Part shown: piece after piece, positions 1,533 through 25,724 of the stretch
Position numbering within the stretch: position 1 is the stretch's first letter
Layout of the letters: each line of letters starts with the position of its first letter
Translations under genes and position numbers: made by a program
IMG/VR virus record: IMGVR_UViG_3300048586_000582
Span: 1-46,006 of that record
DNA length: 46,006 bases
Origin: a virus
Direction: 5' to 3' (one strand)
The notes under the pieces: model-generated
What the model was told of the DNA's origin: nothing
Databases searched by the model: none
What the model saw: only the letters and a program-made list of their open reading frames with translations

Positions 1533-2396
1533 CTAGAACAGCGGCTGCTCGGCCCGCACGGCGCCGAGCGAGCGCACCGCGCAGCGGGCATCGTCATCGC
1601 AGAAGGCCGTGTAGATCGCTGTGGTCGTCGGCGATGAGTGGCCGAGCAGGCCCTGCACCGTCCGCAGGTTCTTCGAGGCATTCAAGGTGCGGGTCCCGAA
1701 CCAGTGCCGGAACTGGTGCAGCGTGGCGTCGACCCCGATCCCGTGCAGGTACACGCTGCCAGCGCGCGAGAGAGCGGCTGGTGTCCACGGCCCCCCGGAA
1801 GGCCGGGTGAAGATCGGCCGGTTGACCCGAGGCATCGGCCACGAGCGGAGCTCCTCGAGCACGATGGGCGACATTGGCACCATCCGCTCCTTCGCGCCCT
1901 TGCCGGTGACGTGGAGCAGCTCCTGGTCGAAGAGCACGTCGTCGCGCGACAGCACCGCCATCTCGCCGACGCGCATGCCGGCGTAGGCAGCCAGGATCAC
2001 CCACCGCCGCTCCATCGGTGGAGCGAGCGCGATCGCCATCGCGAGATCCGCGTCCGACACGGGACGCGGCAGCGTCCTCCGCAGCTTCGGTCGCACGATC
2101 CTCTGCGTCGGATCGACGTCGAGCCGCTCCTCGAGCACCGCCCACGCGTAGAAGCAGTGCAGCGCCGAGATCCAGGTGTAGCGCGTGCGAGCACCGATCT
2201 CCTTGCCATCGAGGAAGCGCTCGAGATCCTCCCGGCCCGCCGTGCCCAGGCCGAGCTCACGAGCCTCGCACCACCGCGCCCAGCCCCGCACCATCGTCAT
2301 CCGCCGCACGATCGTCGACGCCATCAACCCCCGCCGCTCCTGATCCAACCGCCATCCCGCCAGCAGCTCGCCCGCTTCGCTCATCCGCAACTCCAC
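1533..2396 (-). CDS. int: Tyrosine recombinase (phage integrase)
   Basis: 287 residues. The N-terminal SAM-like core-binding domain spans about residues 8-92 and the catalytic domain about 110-275. The tyrosine-recombinase residues are all visible: Arg142 (AGMRVGE), Lys in GKGAKER (165-171), His227-x-x-Arg230, His253 (LLGHSS) and nucleophile Tyr262. It joins phage and host DNA at att sites for integration and, with a directionality factor, excision. It lies next to the repressor on the same strand, the usual lysogeny arrangement. No arm-binding domain is evident, so it is of the shorter XerC/D-like type. A start at Met5 is also possible. Confidence 0.93.
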   Translation of the reverse strand: MELRMSEAGELLAGWRLDQERRGLMASTIVRRMTMVRGWARWCEARELGLGTAGREDLERFLDGKEIGARTRYTWISALHCFYAWAVLEERLDVDPTQRIVRPKLRRTLPRPVSDADLAMAIALAPPMERRWVILAAYAGMRVGEMAVLSRDDVLFDQELLHVTGKGAKERMVPMSPIVLEELRSWPMPRVNRPIFTRPSGGPWTPAALSRAGSVYLHGIGVDATLHQFRHWFGTRTLNASKNLRTVQGLLGHSSPTTTAIYTAFCDDDARCAVRSLGAVRAEQPLF

Positions 2397-2839: not shown

Positions 2840-2926
2840 AAACCGTACGGTCTGCAATAAAATCTCGCAAGGGAATCACGCGATCGGCCTTGACAAGTTC
2901 AAAATCGACTGCGACAGTTCGTGCCC
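2836..2926. promoter_or_regulatory. Divergent repressor / early promoter region
   Basis: Rightward: TTGACA at 2890-2895 and a weak GACAGT at 2913-2918 with a 17-base spacer, placing the start of transcription next to the ATG at 2927. Leftward: TTGCGA (2870-2865) and TACGGT (2847-2842) with a 17-base spacer, placing transcription at or next to the repressor ATG (2835). The perfect palindrome ACCGTACGGT (2842-2851) overlaps the leftward -10. A lone GGAATCAC (2872-2879) matches half of the 19-bp palindrome found four times elsewhere. This is the likely lysis-lysogeny switch. Confidence 0.6.
2909..2921. promoter_or_regulatory. Candidate operator CTGCGACAGTTCG over the rightward -10
   Basis: It matches 11 of 13 bases of the element at 2827-2839 and overlaps the candidate -10 of the rightward early promoter. 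Binding here by the repressor would block that promoter. This is inference from position and similarity. Confidence 0.4.
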
Positions 2927-8026: not shown

Positions 8027-8416
8027 GTGCCCACGATCACCTCCGACCTCACCCCGGTGCAGGCCGACATCCTCGCCGACCTCACCTTCGCCTACGACGA
8101 CATCGCAGCCACCCCCGCCGCCCGAGCTCTCGCACGCCGCGGGATCCTCGAGACCACCACCGACGACCCGGGCCGCTACCGCCTCACCGTCGACGGCGCC
8201 CTCCTCGCCCTCGCCGCGCTCGCCGGCTGGGACATACCCGCCGACTCCGGCGACCCCTACGTCGTCGACCTCTGCGCCCGCAGCGCCCTCGGCACCGCGG
8301 AAGCACACGGCGCCCACCCGACCATGGCCCGCACCGTCATCGACCGCCTCCTCACAGATGCCGGGCTCAAGCCGCTCGACCCCAACGCCACCCCGTACCG
8401 AGGGGAGTCACGCTGA
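8027..8416 (+). CDS. 129-residue winged-helix-like protein
   Basis: GTG 8027, two bases after the previous stop. The pattern Leu-Thr-Pro-Val-Gln-Ala-Asp-Ile-Leu-Ala-Asp-Leu, then Ala-Ala-Arg-Ala-Leu-Ala-Arg-Arg-Gly-Ile-Leu-Glu, then Gly-Arg-Tyr-Arg-Leu-Thr-Val-Asp-Gly looks like a winged helix with its wing strand. The C-terminal half is helical. Its stop overlaps the ParB start (TGATG), so the two are probably made together, and it may help regulate replication or partition. Function is inferred from fold and context only. Confidence 0.6.
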   Translation: MPTITSDLTPVQADILADLTFAYDDIAATPAARALARRGILETTTDDPGRYRLTVDGALLALAALAGWDIPADSGDPYVVDLCARSALGTAEAHGAHPTMARTVIDRLLTDAGLKPLDPNATPYRGESR

Positions 8417-9948
8417 TGGGCGCCGCACGACACCTCGAGCCCGTCGCCGATGCCGTGACGGGCCCGGTCCCGTTCGATGCCGAGCTGCCGATCGACTCGA
8501 TCGTCCCGGACCCGCACAACATCCGTGGCGACGTCGGCGACATCGGTGGCCTGGTGGCCTCGATCAAGGCGATCGGGATCCAGCAGCCGGTCGGTGTCGC
8601 CGCGCTCGAACGCAAGGCTCGAGGCCGGCAGCGCTACGCCCTGATCTGGGGTCACCGCCGCTACGCCGCCGCGAAGAAGGCCGGGCTCACGGTCGTGCCA
8701 GCGATGGTCCGCCACGGCCTCGACGACGTCGCCCGCCTCGAAGCCCAGATCACCGAGAACCTGCAGCGCCAGGACTTGTCGATCATGGAGGAGGCCCGAG
8801 CGTTCGCCCGTCTCGCCGAGCACGGCCGCTCGCAGCGAGCGATCTGCCAGCTGGTCGACCGGTCCCAGGCTCACGTCTCCAAGCGGCTCTCGCTGCTCGC
8901 CCTCGACCCGCCAGACCAGCAGGCGCTCGACGCCGGCAAGATCACCATCGCCGAAGCGCTCGAGCTCACCCGTCTCGCCGACCACCCCGACGCGTACCGC
9001 CGGGCCCGGAAGGCCTGCGGTGACGAGCGCCTGTTTCGCACCGTCATCCGCGACGCCCTCGACGAGCTGAGGTGGGCACCAGCGCGCGAGCTCGCCCTCG
9101 AGAACCTGCCCGCGGGCACCACGATCGTGGAGTGGCCCCGCGACTGGTGGGCCGCCAAGTTCAAGGCGACCATCGACAACCAGCGCGTGCTCGACGAGCG
9201 GGGCGATGCCCGGTTCGGGCCCGCCAACACGGCCGTGCTCCGCTCGCACATGCTCGCGGACTGGTCGATCCACAGCTGCGATCGCCACGCCGCGGTGACG
9301 ATCGCGCCCAGCGGCGACGTCATCTTGGTCTGCACCGACCCCAAGTCCCACGACAAGGCCTCGACCAAGGTCCGCAAGAGCCGGGCCGAGGCCAATGCCG
9401 AACGTCAGCGCGTGGCCAAGCGCGCCGCGGACCGGCAGCGTGACCGGCGCACCAGCGAGCTGCTCGATCCCGACTCCGGGCCCGGCCAGGCGTTCGCCGC
9501 GACGATCGCCGAGCTCGTGGCCGCTGCGCCGCCCAACAGCCCGACCCGGATGCTGCTCGAGGTGTTCGTCGCCGACAGCTACGGACGGAACCTGCGCCCG
9601 GTCGCGAAGCGTCTCGGCATCACGCCGGTCGACCTTCCCTACGGCCAGAAGGACTTCACCGCCGGCGCCGACAACTGGGTCGCGCTCGGCGCAACAGACG
9701 AGGACCGCTTCACCCGGCGCGTCACCGTCGCGATCGCCCGGGCCATGGTCGAGATCGCCGACGCGCTCCGCAACGGCTGGACGCCCCCGGCAGGCACCGT
9801 GGCGCTCTACCGGCTCCTCGCCTACCACTCGTCCGTCCCGCTCGGCGCTGACGACTTCGCCGGGATCCCCGAACAGGCCGCCGTGACGATCGATCAGTAC
9901 CTCACCCTCGACCGCATCTCCGGTCGGCACGCCGGGACCGAGCGATGA
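8416..9948 (+). CDS. ParB/Spo0J-family nuclease-like protein
   Basis: 510 residues. The N-terminal ParB domain shows Pro-x-His-Asn-Ile-Arg near residue 33, Gly-His-Arg-Arg-Tyr-Ala-Ala-Ala-Lys (79-87, the GxRR box of ParB CTPases) and Glu-Asn-Leu-Gln-Arg-Gln-Asp-Leu-Ser (114-122, the ENxxRxxL box). A helix-turn-helix follows at about 138-165 (Gln-Arg-Ala-Ile-Cys-Gln-Leu-Val...Ser-Lys-Arg-Leu). The C-terminal ~330 residues are longer than in chromosomal ParB and unrecognised. ParB proteins load at centromere sites and spread as CTP-dependent clamps. In phages, relatives serve partition, gene silencing or anti-host roles. No ParA is seen nearby. Confidence 0.88.
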   Translation: MGAARHLEPVADAVTGPVPFDAELPIDSIVPDPHNIRGDVGDIGGLVASIKAIGIQQPVGVAALERKARGRQRYALIWGHRRYAAAKKAGLTVVPAMVRHGLDDVARLEAQITENLQRQDLSIMEEARAFARLAEHGRSQRAICQLVDRSQAHVSKRLSLLALDPPDQQALDAGKITIAEALELTRLADHPDAYRRARKACGDERLFRTVIRDALDELRWAPARELALENLPAGTTIVEWPRDWWAAKFKATIDNQRVLDERGDARFGPANTAVLRSHMLADWSIHSCDRHAAVTIAPSGDVILVCTDPKSHDKASTKVRKSRAEANAERQRVAKRAADRQRDRRTSELLDPDSGPGQAFAATIAELVAAAPPNSPTRMLLEVFVADSYGRNLRPVAKRLGITPVDLPYGQKDFTAGADNWVALGATDEDRFTRRVTVAIARAMVEIADALRNGWTPPAGTVALYRLLAYHSSVPLGADDFAGIPEQAAVTIDQYLTLDRISGRHAGTER

Positions 9949-10627: not shown

Positions 10628-10899
10628 AGCGCCGACCTCGCGTCACCATCCCGAACAACCACACAGCGATCGTCGAACTGCAGCCGCCCGAACCCGAGCT
10701 GCTGCAGATCGACCTCGATGACGATGAGCTCGACCTCATCCTCGAAGGACTCGCCCACCTCGCTGCCAGCTCGAACCTGCACCTGGTGGCCGATGTCGAC
10801 GTCCTCGACGCCTGGCTCCGCTACCAGCACGCCCGACAACGCCGAGCCCGCCTCACCGATTCCGCCGGAATCACCGGCCACGGAGCGACCCACCCATGA
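10624..10899 (+). CDS. 91-residue acidic protein, unknown
   Basis: ATG overlaps the previous stop. A short basic N-terminus leads to a beta strand and then a highly acidic Glu-Leu-Leu-Gln-Ile-Asp-Leu-Asp-Asp-Asp-Glu-Leu-Asp-Leu-Ile-Leu run. Helices and an Arg-rich tail follow. The last codons carry palindrome copy B, so the same DNA may serve as a binding site in front of the ATPase gene. Confidence 0.6.
   Translation: MKRRPRVTIPNNHTAIVELQPPEPELLQIDLDDDELDLILEGLAHLAASSNLHLVADVDVLDAWLRYQHARQRRARLTDSAGITGHGATHP
10856..10874. promoter_or_regulatory. 19-bp palindrome family, copy B (17 of 19 bases)
   Basis: Reads CCGATTCCGCCGGAATCAC against the consensus GTGATTCCGNCGGAATCAC; the two differences are the first two bases. 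It is inside a coding region, so it cannot be explained as an intergenic terminator. See the copies at 158, 24056 and 33988. Confidence 0.6.
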
Positions 10900-12641
10900 C
10901 CCGCCGCGCCCACGACTACGGCCTCGAAGGCCCGATGCGCGACATCCTCGGCGACCCCGAGGTCCTCGCCCGGCTCGTCACCGAGACGCTCGCCATCTTG
11001 GCCAAGCGCGGCGCTGGCAAGTCCAACGCCGCAGTGGTGTTCGCCGAGCTGATGTTCGACGGCGGGTTCCCCTGGGTGGCGATCGATCCGAAGGGCGACT
11101 GGTGGGGGATCCGATCAGCCGCCGACGGCAAGAGTCCCGGCCTACCCATCGCAGTCTTCGGCGGCGAGCACGGCGACCTGCCCCTCGAGCCCACCGCTGG
11201 CGAGCTGCTCGCCCGGCTCGTGATCGAGCGCAACATGACCTGCGTCCTCGACGTCTCCGGGTTCTCCAAGGCAGAGCAGATCCGCTTCGTCACCGACTTC
11301 GCCGAGACCCTGTTCAAGCTGATCCGCCGCGACCCTCGGGCCCTGCACCTCATCCTCGAGGAAGCCGAGGAGTTCCTGCCCCAGCGCGTCGATGCCCGCG
11401 CTGCACGGATGGTCGGCGCCTACTCGAAGATCGCGAAGCAGGGCCGGGCGTTCGGGCTCGGCGTCACGCTCGTCAGCCAGCGATCAGCCAGCCTGAACAA
11501 GGACGCGCTCTCCCAGACCGACACGCTGGTCCTGTTCCGCACGCCTTCGCCGCACGACCGGAAGGCCGTCGTCGCATGGGCCGAGCACGACACCGAGGCC
11601 GCCGAGGTGGCCGCCACCCTCGCCGAGCTCCAGCCCGGCGAGTCCTGGATCGTGTCGCCCGGGTTCCTCCGCAGGGTCGTGCGCGTCCGCTGGCCACGAC
11701 GGCGCACCTTCGACTCCGGCGCCACCCCCGCCGCCGGCGCCCGCCGACGCGACCCAGTCTCGCTCGCCGACATCGACCTCGCCGAGATCTCCGGGCTCAT
11801 GGCCGACACCATCGAACGCGCCGCCGGCGACGACCCCAAGGCGCTCCGCCAGCGGATCGCCGAGCTCGAGCACCAGCTGGCCACCCAGCCAGCCCCCGAG
11901 CCCACCGTCGAGCGCATCGAGATCCCCGTCGTCAACCTCGGCCTGCTCGACCAGGCCCGCAGCGAGCTCGCTGCCATCGCGTCCGCCATCGGCCAGCTCG
12001 ACAACCGCCTGGGCGCGGAGATCCTCAACGCGATCGCCGACACCCCGACCGAGCCTCCGCCCCCAACCGCTCGCGCCTCCGCGCCCACTAGCGGCCCCAG
12101 CGCCAGCCCCCCGCCAAGGCCGACATCGTCGCTCGGTAGATCCGGCGGCTGGGAGCCCGGCCTCAAGCTCGCCGAGCGCAAGATCCTCACCGTCCTCGCG
12201 ACCTACGGTCCCATCAGCCGACGACGCCTCGCGCTCCAGGCCGGCTACTCCGCGAAGGGCGGCGGGTTCGGCAACGCCCTGTCCAGGCTCCGCACCGCCG
12301 GACTGATCGCCAGCGGTGACCCCATAGAGCTCACCGCTGCGGGCGTCACCGCGGTCCCCACCAACCTGCCCGAGCTTCCTACCGGCCAAGCGCTCGTCGA
12401 CCACTGGATCTCCCAGCTCACCAAGGCCCCCGGCCTGATCCTGCGAGCCCTCGTCGACGCCCACCCCCGCGCTCTCACCAAGCACGAGCTCGCGGAGCTC
12501 ACCGGGTACGACCCCGCCGGCGGCGGGTTCGGGAACGCCCTCTCACGACTTCGCACCCTCGACCTGATCGTCGGCGAACGAGGCCAACCCCTCGCCCCAG
12601 CACCCGACCTCATCGCCGCGATCACCGGAGCACCCCGATGA
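10896..12641 (+). CDS. HerA/FtsK-like DNA-translocating ATPase with winged-helix tail
   Basis: 581 residues. Walker A is Ala-Lys-Arg-Gly-Ala-Gly-Lys-Ser (36-43) and Walker B is Leu-His-Leu-Ile-Leu-Glu-Glu-Ala-Glu-Glu (150-159). A sensor/arginine-finger region is suggested by Leu-Val-Ser-Gln-Arg-Ser-Ala. This matches the HerA/VirD4/FtsK (DUF87-type) branch. A Pro/Ser-rich linker near 365-400 leads to two repeated winged-helix units, each with Gly-Gly-Gly-Phe-Gly-Asn-Ala-Leu-Ser-Arg-Leu-Arg. It likely forms a hexamer that moves along or remodels DNA. With ParB and a second Xer-like recombinase in this genome, a DNA segregation or dimer-resolution role is possible but unproven. Confidence 0.82.
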   Translation: MTRRAHDYGLEGPMRDILGDPEVLARLVTETLAILAKRGAGKSNAAVVFAELMFDGGFPWVAIDPKGDWWGIRSAADGKSPGLPIAVFGGEHGDLPLEPTAGELLARLVIERNMTCVLDVSGFSKAEQIRFVTDFAETLFKLIRRDPRALHLILEEAEEFLPQRVDARAARMVGAYSKIAKQGRAFGLGVTLVSQRSASLNKDALSQTDTLVLFRTPSPHDRKAVVAWAEHDTEAAEVAATLAELQPGESWIVSPGFLRRVVRVRWPRRRTFDSGATPAAGARRRDPVSLADIDLAEISGLMADTIERAAGDDPKALRQRIAELEHQLATQPAPEPTVERIEIPVVNLGLLDQARSELAAIASAIGQLDNRLGAEILNAIADTPTEPPPPTARASAPTSGPSASPPPRPTSSLGRSGGWEPGLKLAERKILTVLATYGPISRRRLALQAGYSAKGGGFGNALSRLRTAGLIASGDPIELTAAGVTAVPTNLPELPTGQALVDHWISQLTKAPGLILRALVDAHPRALTKHELAELTGYDPAGGGFGNALSRLRTLDLIVGERGQPLAPAPDLIAAITGAPR

Positions 12642-18580: not shown

Positions 18581-18960
18581 GCACCGACCGGCCTCAAGCG
18601 GCCGTGCTCACGTGCCCCCTGTGCGGCCGAACGATGCGCTGCTACGGCCGCCACTTCGTGCTCGAGCACGGCGAGGAGCCAGGCCAGCCGATCTCCCCGA
18701 CGCGCGTCGCCGTGGCGATCGCCTGCGCAGACCGCGTCATCGTCGAGCGCGCCGCCGACGCCGTCGAGTGCGGCCGCCGCACCGGGCACCTCGATCCTGA
18801 CGACCGCCTCGCCGTCGCCGTCGAGCTCGCCCGCCGCGGCAACAACCTCACCACGATCGCCGCCTGCGGGCTGAGCGGCGCTGTCGCCCGACGGGTAGCC
18901 GAGCTCGTGGCCACCGACACCATCCCCGCCCTCCTGACCCTCGCGGAGCCAACCCCATGA
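18577..18960 (+). CDS. Zinc-finger plus HTH-like small protein
   Basis: 127 residues, ATGA overlap. Cys-Pro-Leu-Cys-Gly-Arg-Thr-Met...His-Phe-Val-Leu-Glu-His (about residues 13-31) is a C2H2-type finger. The C-terminal part has Asn-Asn-Leu-Thr-Thr-Ile-Ala-Ala-Cys-Gly-Leu-Ser-Gly-Ala-Val-Ala-Arg-Arg-Val, an HTH-like helix pair. It is a likely DNA-binding regulator. The target is unknown. Confidence 0.65.
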   Translation: MSTDRPQAAVLTCPLCGRTMRCYGRHFVLEHGEEPGQPISPTRVAVAIACADRVIVERAADAVECGRRTGHLDPDDRLAVAVELARRGNNLTTIAACGLSGAVARRVAELVATDTIPALLTLAEPTP

Positions 18961-19805
18961 TGCAGCTCACCCTCGCCATGCCCGCCTCGCCCGATGAGCT
19001 CGCCACCTTCGCCGAGCTCTGCCGCCAGCTCGGCACCCGCACCATCCTCGCCAACTACAACAACCTCTCCGCCAGCGTCGACGCACCAGCGCAACCCCCT
19101 GGCGGACCCCTCGCACTCGCACCCGGCCAGCCCGAGTCCGAGCCGGAGGTGGCGCCCGAGTCCGAGCCGGAGGTGGCGCCCGAGTCCGAGCCGGAGGTGG
19201 CGCCCGAGTCCGAGCCGGAGGTGGCGCCCGATCCCGAGCCGGAGGTGGCGCCCAAGGAGGAGGGCACGGCTCCGGTGCCGGAGGGCGCGTTCGGCACTCG
19301 CCCCGGTTGCGCCCGGGAGTTGCTGCAGTACCTCGTCGCGGTCGGTGGCACCTGGACCCAGTCGGCCACGCAGCTTGCGCTCGACGTCTGGGAGCACTCC
19401 CCGAAGACGGCGCTCCTCGAGCTCGGCAAGCTCGAGGACGAAGGCCTCGTCGTGCGGCACCGCAGCACCGGCACCCGCATCGATCGTGTCGATCTCACCC
19501 CCGCCGGATGGCGGCGAGCCGGCGCAACCCCACCCACCTCGGCCGACGCACCGGGCGCCGAGCTGGACGAGGGCGACCACGAGGCCGAGGCGCCCCGCAC
19601 GCACGGCCGGGGGCGGGAGGACGGCCGGTTGGCCGCAGTGCGGGAGGAGCGCCTCGAGGCCGCCGCAGCGGCGCCTTCCGGGCGCGCCTCCTCGACAGCG
19701 CAGCCGGGCGGCGGAGCAGCTCCGGCATCGATCGATGCGGGCCCGATGCAGCGCCGGCGCTTCGATCCCGATGAGGCACGCCGCCGCGCTGCGGATGCGC
19801 TCTGA
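18957..19805 (+). CDS. Winged-helix protein with a tandem ESEPEVAP repeat linker
   Basis: 282 residues. A short N-terminal helical domain (1-40) is followed by a linker containing five copies of an 8-residue repeat (Glu-Ser-Glu-Pro-Glu-Val-Ala-Pro). A winged helix spans about 118-190: Leu-Leu-Gln-Tyr-Leu-Val-Ala-Val-Gly-Gly-Thr-Trp-Thr-Gln-Ser-Ala, Lys-Leu-Glu-Asp-Glu-Gly-Leu-Val-Val-Arg-His, Arg-Val-Asp-Leu-Thr-Pro-Ala-Gly-Trp. The tail is Ala/Arg-rich and disordered. It is probably a DNA-binding regulator with a flexible acidic tether. No family is named. Confidence 0.65.
   Translation: MMQLTLAMPASPDELATFAELCRQLGTRTILANYNNLSASVDAPAQPPGGPLALAPGQPESEPEVAPESEPEVAPESEPEVAPESEPEVAPDPEPEVAPKEEGTAPVPEGAFGTRPGCARELLQYLVAVGGTWTQSATQLALDVWEHSPKTALLELGKLEDEGLVVRHRSTGTRIDRVDLTPAGWRRAGATPPTSADAPGAELDEGDHEAEAPRTHGRGREDGRLAAVREERLEAAAAAPSGRASSTAQPGGGAAPASIDAGPMQRRRFDPDEARRRAADAL
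19131..19250 (+). repeat. Five 24-bp tandem repeats in coding sequence
   Basis: Units start at 19131, 19155, 19179, 19203 and 19227. The first four are identical; the fifth has two substitutions (GAGTCC to GATCCC). The period is a multiple of three, so copy-number change keeps the frame. The repeats encode the acidic linker. Perfect identity suggests recent expansion by slippage. Confidence 0.95.
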
Positions 19806-19812
19806 TCTACCC

Positions 19813-20034
19813 ATGGCCCGCAAGCCCCGCGTGAACCGGCCGCAGCCGCTCGGCACCTGCCCGACGACCGGAAAGCTGCAGTACTCCCGCATCGATGCCG
19901 CCGTCGCAGCCGAGTCGCGGCGGCGCCGCAACCAGGACCCTCGTCTCGCCACCTACCGGTGCCCAACGTGCGACCGGTGGCACATCGGCCACGACGTCCG
20001 CCCGGAGGGACGCCGCCGGCGGCCACCAACTTGA
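19813..20034 (+). CDS. 73-residue Cys/His zinc protein
   Basis: ATG 19813. A basic N-terminus, Thr-Cys-Pro-Thr-Thr-Gly-Lys, then Tyr-Arg-Cys-Pro-Thr-Cys-Asp-Arg-Trp-His-Ile-Gly-His, is a compact C-C-C-H type knuckle seen in small phage proteins, ending in a poly-Arg tail. It is a probable nucleic-acid binder. It sits immediately before the second recombinase. Confidence 0.6.
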   Translation: MARKPRVNRPQPLGTCPTTGKLQYSRIDAAVAAESRRRRNQDPRLATYRCPTCDRWHIGHDVRPEGRRRRPPT

Positions 20035-20057
20035 CAGCGCGCGGCAGCGTGGTGGCC

Positions 20058-21029
20058 ATGGCCCACGCCCGAGGCGACGACGTCGACGCCCCGACACCGG
20101 ACCGTCTCCCCGGTGTCGTCGTGCCAGGCCCCTCGGGCTGGCCAGCGATCGTTGAGCTGTTCCTCGCCGGGAAGAGGGGCAACACTCGCACCGCCTACGC
20201 CGGCGACCTCAACCAGTTCACCACCTGGTGCCGCCAGCTCGAGATCGATCCGCTCACCGCAACGCGCGCCGACCTGGCTGCGTTCGTGCTGCTGCTCGAG
20301 CAGCGCGGCCGCGCACCGTCGACCATCAGCCGGAAGATCTCCGCGATCGCCGGCGCCTACCGCACGGCGCTCGTCGAGGACGTCATCAGCCGCTCGCCGA
20401 CGACCTACCTCGAACGGCCCAAGGTCCCCGACGAGACCCCCACGGCGTGCCTCGACCGCCAGGGCCTGCTCGACGTCATCGCAGCCTCACGCGCCCACAG
20501 TCCCCTCGCATGGGCGCTCGTGGCCACCCTCGGGCTGAACGGCCTGCGCGTCTCGGAGGTGTGCGGTGCGGACGTCTCGGGCCTGCGGAAGGCGAGCGGG
20601 CACCGGGTGCTCAGCGTCACCCGCAAGGGCGGCAAGCCCAGGCTCATTCCCCTCGCGGAGCCCACGCAGTCGGCGATCGACCACTACCTCGCTGGCCGCA
20701 AGACCGGCCCGCTGCTGCGTGGCCGCGACGACGGCCGACTCTCGCGCCACGCAGCAGCCCGGATCGTCGCCCGCTGTGGCGTCGACGCCGGGATCGAGGA
20801 CGACCTCACCCCGCACAGCCTCCGCCACACCTACGTGACGCTGTGCCGACGCGCTGGCGTCCGGCTCCAAGACGTCCAGGAGTCCGCCGACCACGCCGAC
20901 CCCCGCACGACCCAGCGCTACGACCACGCGCAGCACCGCCTCGACGAAGCGCCCACCTACCGGCTGGCCGACTACCTCGCCGGCCGCATCGGCGATGGGG
21001 GAGCGGACCCCCAAGGGCGCCTCTTCTGA
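20058..21029 (+). CDS. Second tyrosine recombinase (Xer-like)
   Basis: 323 residues. The core-binding domain spans about 25-115 and the catalytic domain about 130-310. All active-site residues are present: Arg164 (Gly-Leu-Arg-Val-Ser-Glu), Lys193 in Arg-Lys-Gly-Gly-Lys-Pro-Arg, His253-x-x-Arg256, His279 (Asp-His where Gly-His is usual) and Tyr288. It is not a close copy of the integrase at 1533 and is transcribed with the early region instead of the repressor. It may resolve multimers, act in integration at another site, or be the main integrase with the other as accessory. An upstream in-frame start cannot be excluded. Confidence 0.9.
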   Translation: MAHARGDDVDAPTPDRLPGVVVPGPSGWPAIVELFLAGKRGNTRTAYAGDLNQFTTWCRQLEIDPLTATRADLAAFVLLLEQRGRAPSTISRKISAIAGAYRTALVEDVISRSPTTYLERPKVPDETPTACLDRQGLLDVIAASRAHSPLAWALVATLGLNGLRVSEVCGADVSGLRKASGHRVLSVTRKGGKPRLIPLAEPTQSAIDHYLAGRKTGPLLRGRDDGRLSRHAAARIVARCGVDAGIEDDLTPHSLRHTYVTLCRRAGVRLQDVQESADHADPRTTQRYDHAQHRLDEAPTYRLADYLAGRIGDGGADPQGRLF

Positions 21030-21030
21030 C

Positions 21031-21258
21031 ATGCGCGCACCAGGACGCGACGACCCCGGCACCCAAGACGACGACGAGCACGCCCGGATCTACCACCCCG
21101 ACCGCACCCTGGAACCGGCCGCCGCCCTCGACGTCGACGTCGAACCCAGTCCGATCGTGGCGACGCTCCTCGGACCACGCGGCGAGGTCCTCGTCGAGCT
21201 GCGCGCCCGCCCGACGATCGCCTTCGGCTTCCAGAAGAATCCTCCCAGAAACTGTTGA
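21031..21258 (+). CDS. 75-residue protein, unknown
   Basis: ATG 21031 lies one base after the recombinase stop. The acidic N-terminus (Asp-Asp-Pro-Gly-Thr-Gln-Asp-Asp-Asp-Glu) is followed by a strand pair (Ile-Val-Ala-Thr-Leu-Leu-Gly-Pro-Arg-Gly-Glu-Val-Leu-Val-Glu-Leu). Its last codons overlap the promoter of the next gene. No family recognised. Confidence 0.55.
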   Translation: MRAPGRDDPGTQDDDEHARIYHPDRTLEPAAALDVDVEPSPIVATLLGPRGEVLVELRARPTIAFGFQKNPPRNC

Positions 21259-21294
21259 CGGCGTACTCTCCCTCCTATATATTGACGGTGTCAA
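21255..21294 (+). promoter_or_regulatory. Strong promoter with palindromic operator
   Basis: TTGACG (21255-21260) and TATATT (21278-21283), spacer 17, is the best sigma-70-type promoter in the window and sits in an unusually AT-rich patch. TTGACGGTGTCAA (21282-21294) is a perfect inverted repeat (TTGAC-3-GTCAA) over the expected transcription start, and TTGACGGCGT at the -35 is a direct partial repeat of it. This fits repression, probably by a local regulator such as the HTH protein at 21598. Confidence 0.8.
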
Positions 21295-21314
21295 CTAAAG
21301 GAGGTAGAAACCGT

Positions 21315-21512
21315 ATGAACAAGGAGGTCGAGGAGCTGATCTCCACCGTGAAGTCCTGGAAGGGCTGGCGAGTCGAAGATCGGAAGAAGGGCTACTTGGT
21401 CTTTCCGCCCGACAAGGCCCACCAGCCGATCCCGATCCATCGGACCCCCTCAGGGCACCGATGGAAGGCCAACACGGTGGCCAAGCTCCGGCGGGCGGGC
21501 GGTCCCATCTAG
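21315..21512 (+). CDS. HicA-like toxin/dsRNA-binding-fold protein
   Basis: 65 residues from ATG 21315, with a near-perfect Shine-Dalgarno (AAAGGAGGT). The fold pattern Trp-Arg-Val-x-Asp-Arg-Lys-Lys-Gly-Tyr-Leu-Val-Phe-Pro-Pro, then Pro-Ile-Pro-Ile-His-Arg-Thr-Pro-Ser-Gly-His-Arg, then Leu-Arg-Arg-Ala-Gly-Gly resembles HicA mRNA interferases, whose catalytic His sits in the second strand (here the His of Ile-Pro-Ile-His). It has its own regulated promoter, an arrangement typical of toxin-antitoxin or lysogen-expressed genes. No classical HicB is adjacent; the HTH gene at 21598 is the candidate partner. Confidence 0.7.
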   Translation: MNKEVEELISTVKSWKGWRVEDRKKGYLVFPPDKAHQPIPIHRTPSGHRWKANTVAKLRRAGGPI

Positions 21513-21532
21513 GGGCCGCCCACCCCGGGCCC

Positions 21533-21550
21533 GTGGCTCTCCGGAGCCAC
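21533..21550 (+). terminator. Hairpin after the HicA-like gene
   Basis: GTGGCTC (21533-21539), loop TCCG, GAGCCAC (21544-21550) in a GC-rich stretch, 21 bases after the stop. No T-run follows, so it may be an attenuator between the HicA-like gene and the HTH gene rather than a full terminator. Confidence 0.45.
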
Positions 21551-21597
21551 CGGCCCTCGGCCGAACCTCCAACCCCCGACCAGAAGGACCCCGCCCC

Positions 21598-22074
21598 ATG
21601 GACTACACCGCCACGATCACGTGGCTCCCCGCCCACACGCCCAGCGCCGACGCGCTCCTCGACCTCGCCGGCGACGACCACGGCACCGTGGTCTCGCAGG
21701 AGGGCGACCAGCTGGTCGCCGTCCTCACCGTCGACGGCACGACCCCCACCGACGCTCTCGCCTCGGCGATCGACCACTGCCTCCGCGCCCACCCCGGGAC
21801 CCTCGCCGCGGCCGAGATCGCCACCACCGCCGAGCACGACCGCCGCCTCGCCCTCGACGCCCGCCCCCAGCTGGTCGGCCTCAGCGAGATCGCCGAGCAG
21901 CTCGGCGTCACCCGCCAGCGGGCCAACACGCTGCGCCGCTCGCGCAGCGACTTCCCCGACCCCGCCGCCGAGCTGCGCGCCGGTCCCGTCTGGTTCGCCG
22001 CTGACGTCACCCGCTTCGTCGAGACCTGGTCCCGGCGCCCGGGCCGCCCGCCCAGCACCACCACGACCACCTGA
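21598..22074 (+). CDS. HTH regulator, candidate partner of the HicA-like protein
   Basis: 158 residues with AAGGA upstream. The N-terminal alpha/beta domain (about 1-78) has Gln-Leu-Val-Ala-Val-Leu-Thr-Val-Asp-Gly and Ala-Leu-Ala-Ser-Ala-Ile-Asp-His-Cys-Leu. The C-terminal MerR/AlpA-like winged HTH (about 96-150) has Leu-Ser-Glu-Ile-Ala-Glu-Gln-Leu-Gly-Val-Thr-Arg-Gln-Arg-Ala-Asn-Thr-Leu-Arg, then Phe-Pro-Asp-Pro, then Gly-Pro-Val-Trp-Phe-Ala-Ala-Asp-Val. This two-domain form occurs in many actinobacterial small regulators. Position after the HicA-like gene suggests antitoxin or autoregulator; that is inference. Confidence 0.7.
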   Translation: MDYTATITWLPAHTPSADALLDLAGDDHGTVVSQEGDQLVAVLTVDGTTPTDALASAIDHCLRAHPGTLAAAEIATTAEHDRRLALDARPQLVGLSEIAEQLGVTRQRANTLRRSRSDFPDPAAELRAGPVWFAADVTRFVETWSRRPGRPPSTTTTT

Positions 22075-25196: not shown

Positions 25197-25724
25197 ATGG
25201 GTGGACGTGGACCACTGCCGACCGGCGACGCCGTGCGCCGCAACAAGCCGACCATCCCCACCAGCACGCTGCCAGCATCGGGGCGAGAGGACCCGATTCC
25301 CGACCCGCCGGCCGAGTACTTCTTCGGACCAGCCGCTGAGGACTGGTGGGCGTGGGCGTGGCGCACACCCCAGGCGTGCGCGTGGGACGACGGTGCCCTG
25401 TTCGTCGTCGCGCGGCGCGCCCAGCTCGAAGACGACGCCTCGGTCCTCGAGAACGTCGACATCGACTTCGACTTCCTCATCGGTGACGAGCCCGGCGAGG
25501 CCGCCCGCAACCTCGGGTTCCTCGTCGGGAAGCTGAAGGCGCTCGCCGGCGGGAAGATGGGCGTGCTGCGCGAGATGCGCGAGCTCGACGACCGACTGGG
25601 CCTGACCCCTCGCGGTCTCGCCGCCAACCGGTGGAAGATCGTCGACGTCGACGAGAACCAGAAGGGCCCGGCCGCTCCGGGCCCGGGCGCCGGTGGCGGC
25701 CGCCGACGCCTCACCGCCGTCTGA
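25197..25724 (+). CDS. terS: Terminase small subunit
   Basis: 175 residues from ATG 25197 with GGAGG seven bases upstream. It sits between HNH and the large terminase and overlaps the latter by TGATG. The central part (Trp-Trp-Ala-Trp-Ala-Trp-Arg-Thr-Pro-Gln-Ala-Cys-Ala-Trp-Asp-Asp-Gly-Ala-Leu-Phe) and the helices that follow are typical of actinophage small terminase subunits. The Gly/Pro-rich tail ends Arg-Arg-Arg-Leu-Thr. It would recognise the packaging site. The call rests mainly on context. Confidence 0.75.
   Translation: MGGRGPLPTGDAVRRNKPTIPTSTLPASGREDPIPDPPAEYFFGPAAEDWWAWAWRTPQACAWDDGALFVVARRAQLEDDASVLENVDIDFDFLIGDEPGEAARNLGFLVGKLKALAGGKMGVLREMRELDDRLGLTPRGLAANRWKIVDVDENQKGPAAPGPGAGGGRRRLTAV

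What the first reader, a model, noticed from the sequence alone, without database searches (positions are those of the whole stretch)
21255..22074. HicA-like gene with its own strong promoter, palindromic operator and an HTH partner
The best promoter in the window (TTGACG, 17 bases, TATATT) with TTGACGGTGTCAA over the start site drives a HicA-like 65-residue protein, followed by a hairpin and an MerR/AlpA-type two-domain regulator in place of a normal HicB. The local AT-rich patch and ideal Shine-Dalgarno stand out. It may be a new toxin-antitoxin pairing, an exclusion function or a lysogen stabiliser.
Basis: partly seen in the sequence, partly recalled or inferred. Interest (0 to 1): 0.65.

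Follow-up and report, generated by a model that had tools for sequence, protein, structure and literature searches.

The report
Phage HicA-like pair with shared operator
A bacterial virus carries a two-gene module, a small HicA-like protein followed by a DNA-binding partner, behind a strong promoter flanked by two copies of a short palindrome; the same pair and a similar palindrome recur in distantly related phages, plasmids and bacteria, so it is a widespread self-regulating toxin-antitoxin-like unit that has hardly been studied.

Summary
At 21255-22074 there is the only sigma-70-like promoter of the window, an exact TTGACGGTGTCAA palindrome just downstream of the -10, a 65-residue HicA-like ORF, a hairpin, and a 158-residue regulator. 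In searches made with the regulator alone, most full-length relatives (20 of 24 loci listed) have a HicA-like gene directly upstream; none of 35 HTH-only relatives does. The palindrome is not local: a TTGAC-type dyad recurs 25-34 bases before hicA in 14 of 20 actinobacterial pairs (shuffles: 0.7), with arm covariation, and TTGAC/TTGTC dyads sit at the promoters of the related PADLOC candidate system PDC-M06 in Escherichia phage Cyrano and a Cupriavidus plasmid. The partner is not a standard HicB: the model gives a ferredoxin-like domain plus a MerR/AlpA-type winged helix. The HicA-like protein has the HicA fold, but the catalytic histidine is tyrosine here, as in half of the actinobacterial pairs. 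Best reading: an autorepressed, HicAB-like type II toxin-antitoxin module, a divergent actinobacterial branch of PDC-M06. Pairing and operator are well supported by sequence; toxicity, neutralisation and DNA binding are inferred. Excisionase is unlikely, because integrase adjacency is not conserved.

The parts
21255..21260 (+). -35 hexamer TTGACG
   Evidence: 10 of 12 consensus matches; only site in the window
21255..21264 (+). operator copy O1 (TTGACGGCGT), overlaps the -35; shares 9 of 10 bases with O2
   Evidence: an upstream copy 25-34 bp before O2 occurs in 8 of 20 related loci, 0.1 expected
21278..21283 (+). -10 hexamer TATATT
21282..21294 (+). operator copy O2, perfect dyad TTGAC-GGT-GTCAA
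   Evidence: none in 100 shuffles; conserved position and dyad in related loci
21297..21304 (+). Shine-Dalgarno AAAGGAGG
   Evidence: direct reading
21315..21512 (+). HicA-like protein, 65 aa; position of the HicA catalytic His is Tyr27
   Evidence: PADLOC HicA-like E 2.4e-5; phrog_2089 E 2.2e-8; HicA fold; alignment
21527..21556 (+). hairpin GGGCCCGTGGCTC-TCCG-GAGCCACCGGCCC between the genes, possible attenuator; no U tract
21598..22074 (+). partner protein, 158 aa, DNA-binding regulator and putative antitoxin
   Evidence: (PDC-M06B E 2.7e-9)
21604..21825 (+). N-terminal ferredoxin-like (beta-alpha-beta-beta-alpha-beta) domain of the partner, residues 3-76
21871..22029 (+). C-terminal winged helix (MerR/AlpA-like), residues 92-144, followed by the family's W-x-R-x-PGRP tail

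Best explanation
It is an autorepressed, HicAB-like type II toxin-antitoxin module carried by an actinobacterial temperate phage. The strong promoter transcribes the HicA-like gene and, through or past a hairpin, the partner gene. The partner dimerises, binds the two TTGAC dyads that flank the -10, and shuts the promoter. Its ferredoxin-like domain most likely holds the HicA-like protein inactive. If the partner is lost (prophage curing, phage takeover), the promoter opens and the HicA-like protein, an RNA-binding or RNA-cleaving protein with Tyr at the catalytic position, accumulates and stops growth. Shown here by sequence: conserved pairing, conserved operator position and dyad. Predicted: both folds. 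Inferred: DNA binding, neutralisation, toxicity.
For: Pairing: searches with the regulator profile alone found full-length relatives, and 20 of 24 loci (window included) have a HicA-like ORF directly upstream on the same strand, against 0 of 35 HTH-only loci. Of 14 full-length loci not used to build the HicA profile, 11 have it. Operator: exact TTGAC 25-34 bases before hicA in 14 of 20 loci, shuffles mean 0.7, maximum 4 in 2000; second copy 25-34 bp upstream in 8 of 20, 0.1 expected. Dyad arms covary: 93% paired, covariation 0.381 against 0.216, reached by 1 of 500 shuffles. TTGwC/GwCAA dyads in 7 of 26 promoters, 0.07 expected, including Escherichia phage Cyrano and Cupriavidus. Folds. Relatives annotated toxin/antitoxin. 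HicB proteins repress from palindromic promoter operators (PMC11594946, PMC10865869).
Against: The catalytic His of HicA is Tyr in this protein and in 10 of 20 actinobacterial paired HicA-like proteins; H31A or H31R inactivates the phage Adephagia toxin (PMC11373665), and an orphan phage HicA of LeBron was not toxic (PMC13148394). The partner's N-terminal domain does not have the partial RNase H fold of HicB. No experiment shows binding, toxicity or neutralisation. The foldseek E-values for the HicA-like model are not significant; only the TM-scores point to HicA.
Confidence: 0.55

Rival explanations
1. Not a toxin: the Tyr-type HicA-like protein is a catalytically dead RNA- or DNA-binding corepressor or anti-repressor, and the pair is a small regulatory switch of the prophage.
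For: Tyr, Phe, Ser or Gln replaces the catalytic His in 13 of 20 actinobacterial pairs while the fold and pairing are kept. HicA binding changes operator binding by HicB in known systems (PMC11594946).
Against: Seven actinobacterial pairs with recognisably the same partner keep His, as do the proteobacterial PDC-M06A proteins read here. Tyr serves as a catalytic residue in other RNase toxins such as RelE (own knowledge).
Confidence: 0.25
2. The partner is an excisionase (recombination directionality factor) for the tyrosine integrase encoded 285 bases upstream of the HicA-like gene, and the HicA-like gene is a passenger.
For: AlpA/Xis-like HTH; weak matches to PHROG families named excisionase and transcriptional regulator; integrase at 19959-21029; integrase 560 bp away in G043.
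Against: Of 13 genomes carrying the regulator, only two have a listed integrase close by (G043, and G634 at 3.4 kb) (listing truncated). Cyrano/SSU5-type phage-plasmids carry the pair next to replication and recombination genes. The regulator follows its HicA-like gene, not the integrase.
Confidence: 0.07
3. Anti-phage or superinfection-exclusion module, the role proposed for PDC-M06 and for HicA domains in general. The mechanism would be as in the best explanation, triggered by infection.
For: 11 of 12 regulators match PADLOC PDC-M06B, and P0005 of Cyrano matches PDC-M06A at 1e-19. HicA domains are argued to serve phage defence (PMC10865869).
Against: PADLOC lists PDC-M06 as a candidate only; no paper in the library names it. 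No defence genes were seen beside the pair in the window.
Confidence: 0.13

Closest known systems
PDC-M06 (PADLOC candidate defence system; pair in Escherichia phage Cyrano, Salmonella phage SSU5 and related phage-plasmids)
   Same: HicA-like gene first, HTH protein second; winged-helix domain matches PDC-M06B at E 2.7e-9; TTGAC-type dyad at the hicA promoter; terminator or hairpin between the genes
   Different: The HicA-like protein of the window does not match the PDC-M06A models; the N-terminal domain of the partner is too divergent to match; Tyr instead of His
Toxin gene 36 / antitoxin gene 35 of Mycobacterium abscessus prophage prophi91-4
   Same: Same actinobacterial family, same order, Tyr at the catalytic position, same operator type
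   Different: Genes overlap by 4 bases, longer C-terminal tails, no hairpin between the genes, different place in the phage genome
HicAB with HTH-type HicB (class 3 of Gerdes, mBio 2024, PMC10865869)
   Different: Partner has a ferredoxin-like N-domain and a MerR/AlpA winged helix instead of a partial RNase H fold with a classical HTH; catalytic His replaced
HicA-like toxins of Microbacterium phages (Dismasvirus) and Adephagia gp91/gp90
   Same: Small actinophage HicA-like protein, 40% identity over 62 residues to the Dismasvirus protein; Adephagia pair is an experimentally shown toxin-antitoxin system (PMC11373665)
   Different: Those keep the catalytic His; the Dismasvirus gene stands alone, without HTH partner or TTGAC operator; Adephagia HicB is a 65-residue protein encoded upstream

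Membership tests
HicA toxin | HicA fold (alpha-beta-beta-beta-alpha, dsRNA-binding-like) | tested here: met
   Model pLDDT 87 with that order; the highest full-length TM-scores in the PDB list are HicA of B. pseudomallei, S. pneumoniae and E. coli, 0.47-0.54, although the E-values are not significant
HicA toxin | sequence match to the HicA family | tested here: inconclusive
   PADLOC HicA-like E 2.4e-5; Pfam PF07927 matched by 2 of 21 family members (best 1.3e-4), not by this one
HicA toxin | catalytic histidine at the start of the second strand | tested here: not met
   Tyr27 in the aligned position
HicA toxin | toxicity and RNase activity | not testable with these tools
   needs expression and RNA cleavage assays
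HicB antitoxin | N-terminal partial RNase H fold | tested here: not met
   Model order beta-alpha-beta-beta-alpha-beta; PDB matches are ferredoxin-like proteins (ACT, CcmK, S6), no HicB among the 50 shown; moderate model confidence
[quoted passage not shown]
   Winged helix residues 92-144, pLDDT about 95; Pfam HTH_17 in 5 of 12 members
Type II toxin-antitoxin operon | conserved adjacent pair, toxin first as in hicAB | tested here: met
   20 of 24 full-length regulators against 0 of 35 HTH-only relatives
Type II toxin-antitoxin operon | autoregulation through operators at the promoter | tested here: inconclusive
   Conserved, covarying dyads at the promoter; binding not shown
PDC-M06 | PDC-M06B regulator | tested here: met
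   E 2.7e-9 over the winged-helix part; 11 of 12 family members match
PDC-M06 | PDC-M06A partner | tested here: not met
   The HicA-like protein matches PADLOC HicA-like but none of the PDC-M06A models
Excisionase / RDF | linkage to the integrase gene | tested here: not met
   Integrase close by in only 2 of 13 genomes (listing truncated)

The most novel reading that the evidence does not exclude
An actinobacterial and phage branch of HicA-like proteins has exchanged the catalytic histidine for tyrosine while keeping its dedicated regulator and operator, so that it either cleaves RNA by a tyrosine-based chemistry or has become a non-catalytic RNA-binding regulator, paired with a new antitoxin type (ferredoxin-like domain plus MerR/AlpA winged helix).
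Probability: 0.45. Interest if true: 0.65.

Novelty: new variant of a known kind. Interest (0 to 1): 0.5.

Why it matters
It links genes annotated separately as HicA-like toxin, excisionase or AlpA regulator, hypothetical, and PDC-M06 candidate into one module that recurs with its operator from actinophages to enterobacterial phage-plasmids. The operator predicts the regulator's binding site in each genome, which makes the system directly testable. The natural Tyr-for-His exchange in half of the actinobacterial members offers a way to ask whether HicA-fold proteins need the histidine or have another function.

Tried and rejected
Single-protein scans of viral contigs with P0001 and P0002 found nothing; relatives appeared only with profiles. 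Two wide alignments were too diverse for the pattern scan. Pfam and NCBIfam gave no family for either protein above threshold. Sequence search of the PDB found no relative; the weak penicillin-binding-protein, HAD and Prp31 matches were taken as chance. Vibrio phage matches of P0001 fall in a gene noted as integrase, about 30% identity, taken as chance. The 'palindrome alone' reading was dropped when the second copy and the relatives showed a two-site arrangement. Excisionase role rejected as the general function because integrase adjacency is not conserved. An RNA hairpin in the leader is an alternative for O2, but O1 lies in the -35 and is not transcribed, which favours a DNA operator. PDC-M06 is not described in any paper of the library.

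Full report
What is there. The window is a single virus record of 46 kb and 71% GC. It carries the gene set of an actinobacterial temperate siphovirus: terminase at 25631 and portal at 27348; head decoration, major tail protein and tape measure. Its portal resembles those of Gordonia, Nocardia, Mycobacterium and Streptomyces phages at up to 36% identity. The finding sits between a tyrosine integrase (19959-21029) and early genes.

The HicA-like protein. It matches the PADLOC HicA-like model (E 2e-5) and phrog_2089 (E 2e-8), and is 40% identical over 62 residues to proteins annotated HicA-like toxin in Microbacterium phages. The predicted structure is the HicA fold. Three HicA crystal structures give the best full-length TM-scores, around 0.5, but without significant E-values. 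The catalytic histidine of HicA aligns with Tyr27 at the start of the second strand. Among 20 actinobacterial paired proteins, 10 have Tyr, 7 His, and one each Phe, Ser and Gln. In phage Adephagia gp91, changing that His abolishes toxicity (PMC11373665).

The partner. PADLOC's PDC-M06B model matches its winged-helix part at E 2.7e-9. The model shows an N-terminal beta-alpha-beta-beta-alpha-beta domain and a C-terminal MerR/AlpA-type winged helix. Structure matches of the N-domain are ferredoxin-like proteins, and no HicB is among the 50 shown. HicB has a partial RNase H fold instead (PMC10865869).

The pair is real. Profiles of the partner alone were searched through 396 genomes of the phylum, 24 of one small class, 395 of the class of Kineosporia and 3 of another class, plus viral contigs. 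Hits that cover the N-domain have a HicA-like ORF directly upstream in 20 of 24 loci; the four without are L006, where a frame-disrupted remnant is visible, L056, L058 and L076. Hits to the HTH alone have none in 35; two of those 35, L062 and L064, also cover part of the N-domain. For 14 full-length loci that played no part in building the HicA profile, 11 had the partner gene. L053, L067 and L070 come from one genome and are not fully independent.

The operator is real. In 14 of 20 loci an exact TTGAC lies 25-34 bases before the HicA start codon, downstream of the -10; shuffles give 0.7 on average and at most 4. Because TTGACA is also the -35 consensus, one upstream copy is expected of any promoter; this downstream copy is not. 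In 8 of 20 there is also an upstream copy 25-34 bp away (0.1 expected). The downstream element is a dyad such as CCCTTG-N8-CAAGGG, and its arms covary: L073 has CTAG/CTAG, L009 GTTG/CAAC, L052 ATTG/CAAT. Strict TTGwC/GwCAA dyads occur in 7 of 26 promoters (0.07 expected), including Escherichia phage Cyrano (TTGACAGATGTCAA) and a Cupriavidus plasmid (TTGTCAGTTGACAA). A Vibrio plasmid has a perfect GTCTACAATTGTAGAC with a second partial copy 31 bp upstream, and a Mycobacterium intracellulare plasmid has repeated CAACAT sites. The Microbacterium orphan gene has no such element. A hairpin or terminator between the two genes also occurs in Cyrano, Klebsiella, V. alginolyticus and Kineosporia (read by eye).

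Mechanism. Shown by sequence: co-occurrence, gene order, operator position and dyad. Predicted: the two folds. Inferred: the partner binds the two dyads around the -10 and represses; it also holds the HicA-like protein in check; the HicA-like protein harms the cell when free. Excision control is unlikely because integrase adjacency is not kept (2 of 13 genomes). The main doubt is whether the Tyr-type protein is a toxin at all.

Comparison. The module works like HicAB and is closest to PDC-M06 and to the toxin/antitoxin pair of the M. abscessus prophage prophi91-4. It fails two defining features, the HicA catalytic His and the HicB RNase H fold, so it is not filed as a canonical HicAB. It is a new variant of a known kind; the conserved operator, the partner's domain make-up and the Tyr exchange are the new points.

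Noticed in passing
window 1533-2396 (-) and 19959-21029 (+): Two different tyrosine integrases in one phage contig; the first is next to an Xre-type repressor (2464-2835, -), the second is next to the finding.
   Followed up: no
window 2867-2902: Between the Xre repressor and the divergent gene lies CAAGGGAA...CCTTGACAAGTTCAA, one mismatch from TTGAC-N3-GTCAA, so the partner protein may also act on the lysogeny control region.
   Followed up: partly
window 8416-9945 and 10896-12638 (+): A ParB-like protein followed by a terminase/FtsK-like ATPase in the early region, in addition to the true terminase at 25631; possible phage-plasmid traits.
   Followed up: no
L017 about 1130-1205: The pair in genome G018 starts directly downstream of what reads as a tRNA gene, a typical integration site; its HicA-like protein is divergent in its N-terminal half.
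   Followed up: no
L003 2913-4222: The M. abscessus prophage prophi91-4 carries a second, unrelated annotated toxin/antitoxin pair convergent with the HicA-like pair.
   Followed up: partly
L004 2205-2240, L080 855-890, L083 820-850, L006 3600-3640: A hairpin or terminator lies between hicA and the regulator gene in several distant relatives, as in the window, which suggests attenuation between the genes.
   Followed up: partly
L076 1668-2174 and 3001-3495: One viral contig has two copies of the regulator in tandem, with TTGTC- or TTGAC-type dyads nearby, and no clear HicA-like gene.
   Followed up: no
window 18957-19805: ORF with repeated SEPEVAPE units in a 75% GC stretch.
   Followed up: no
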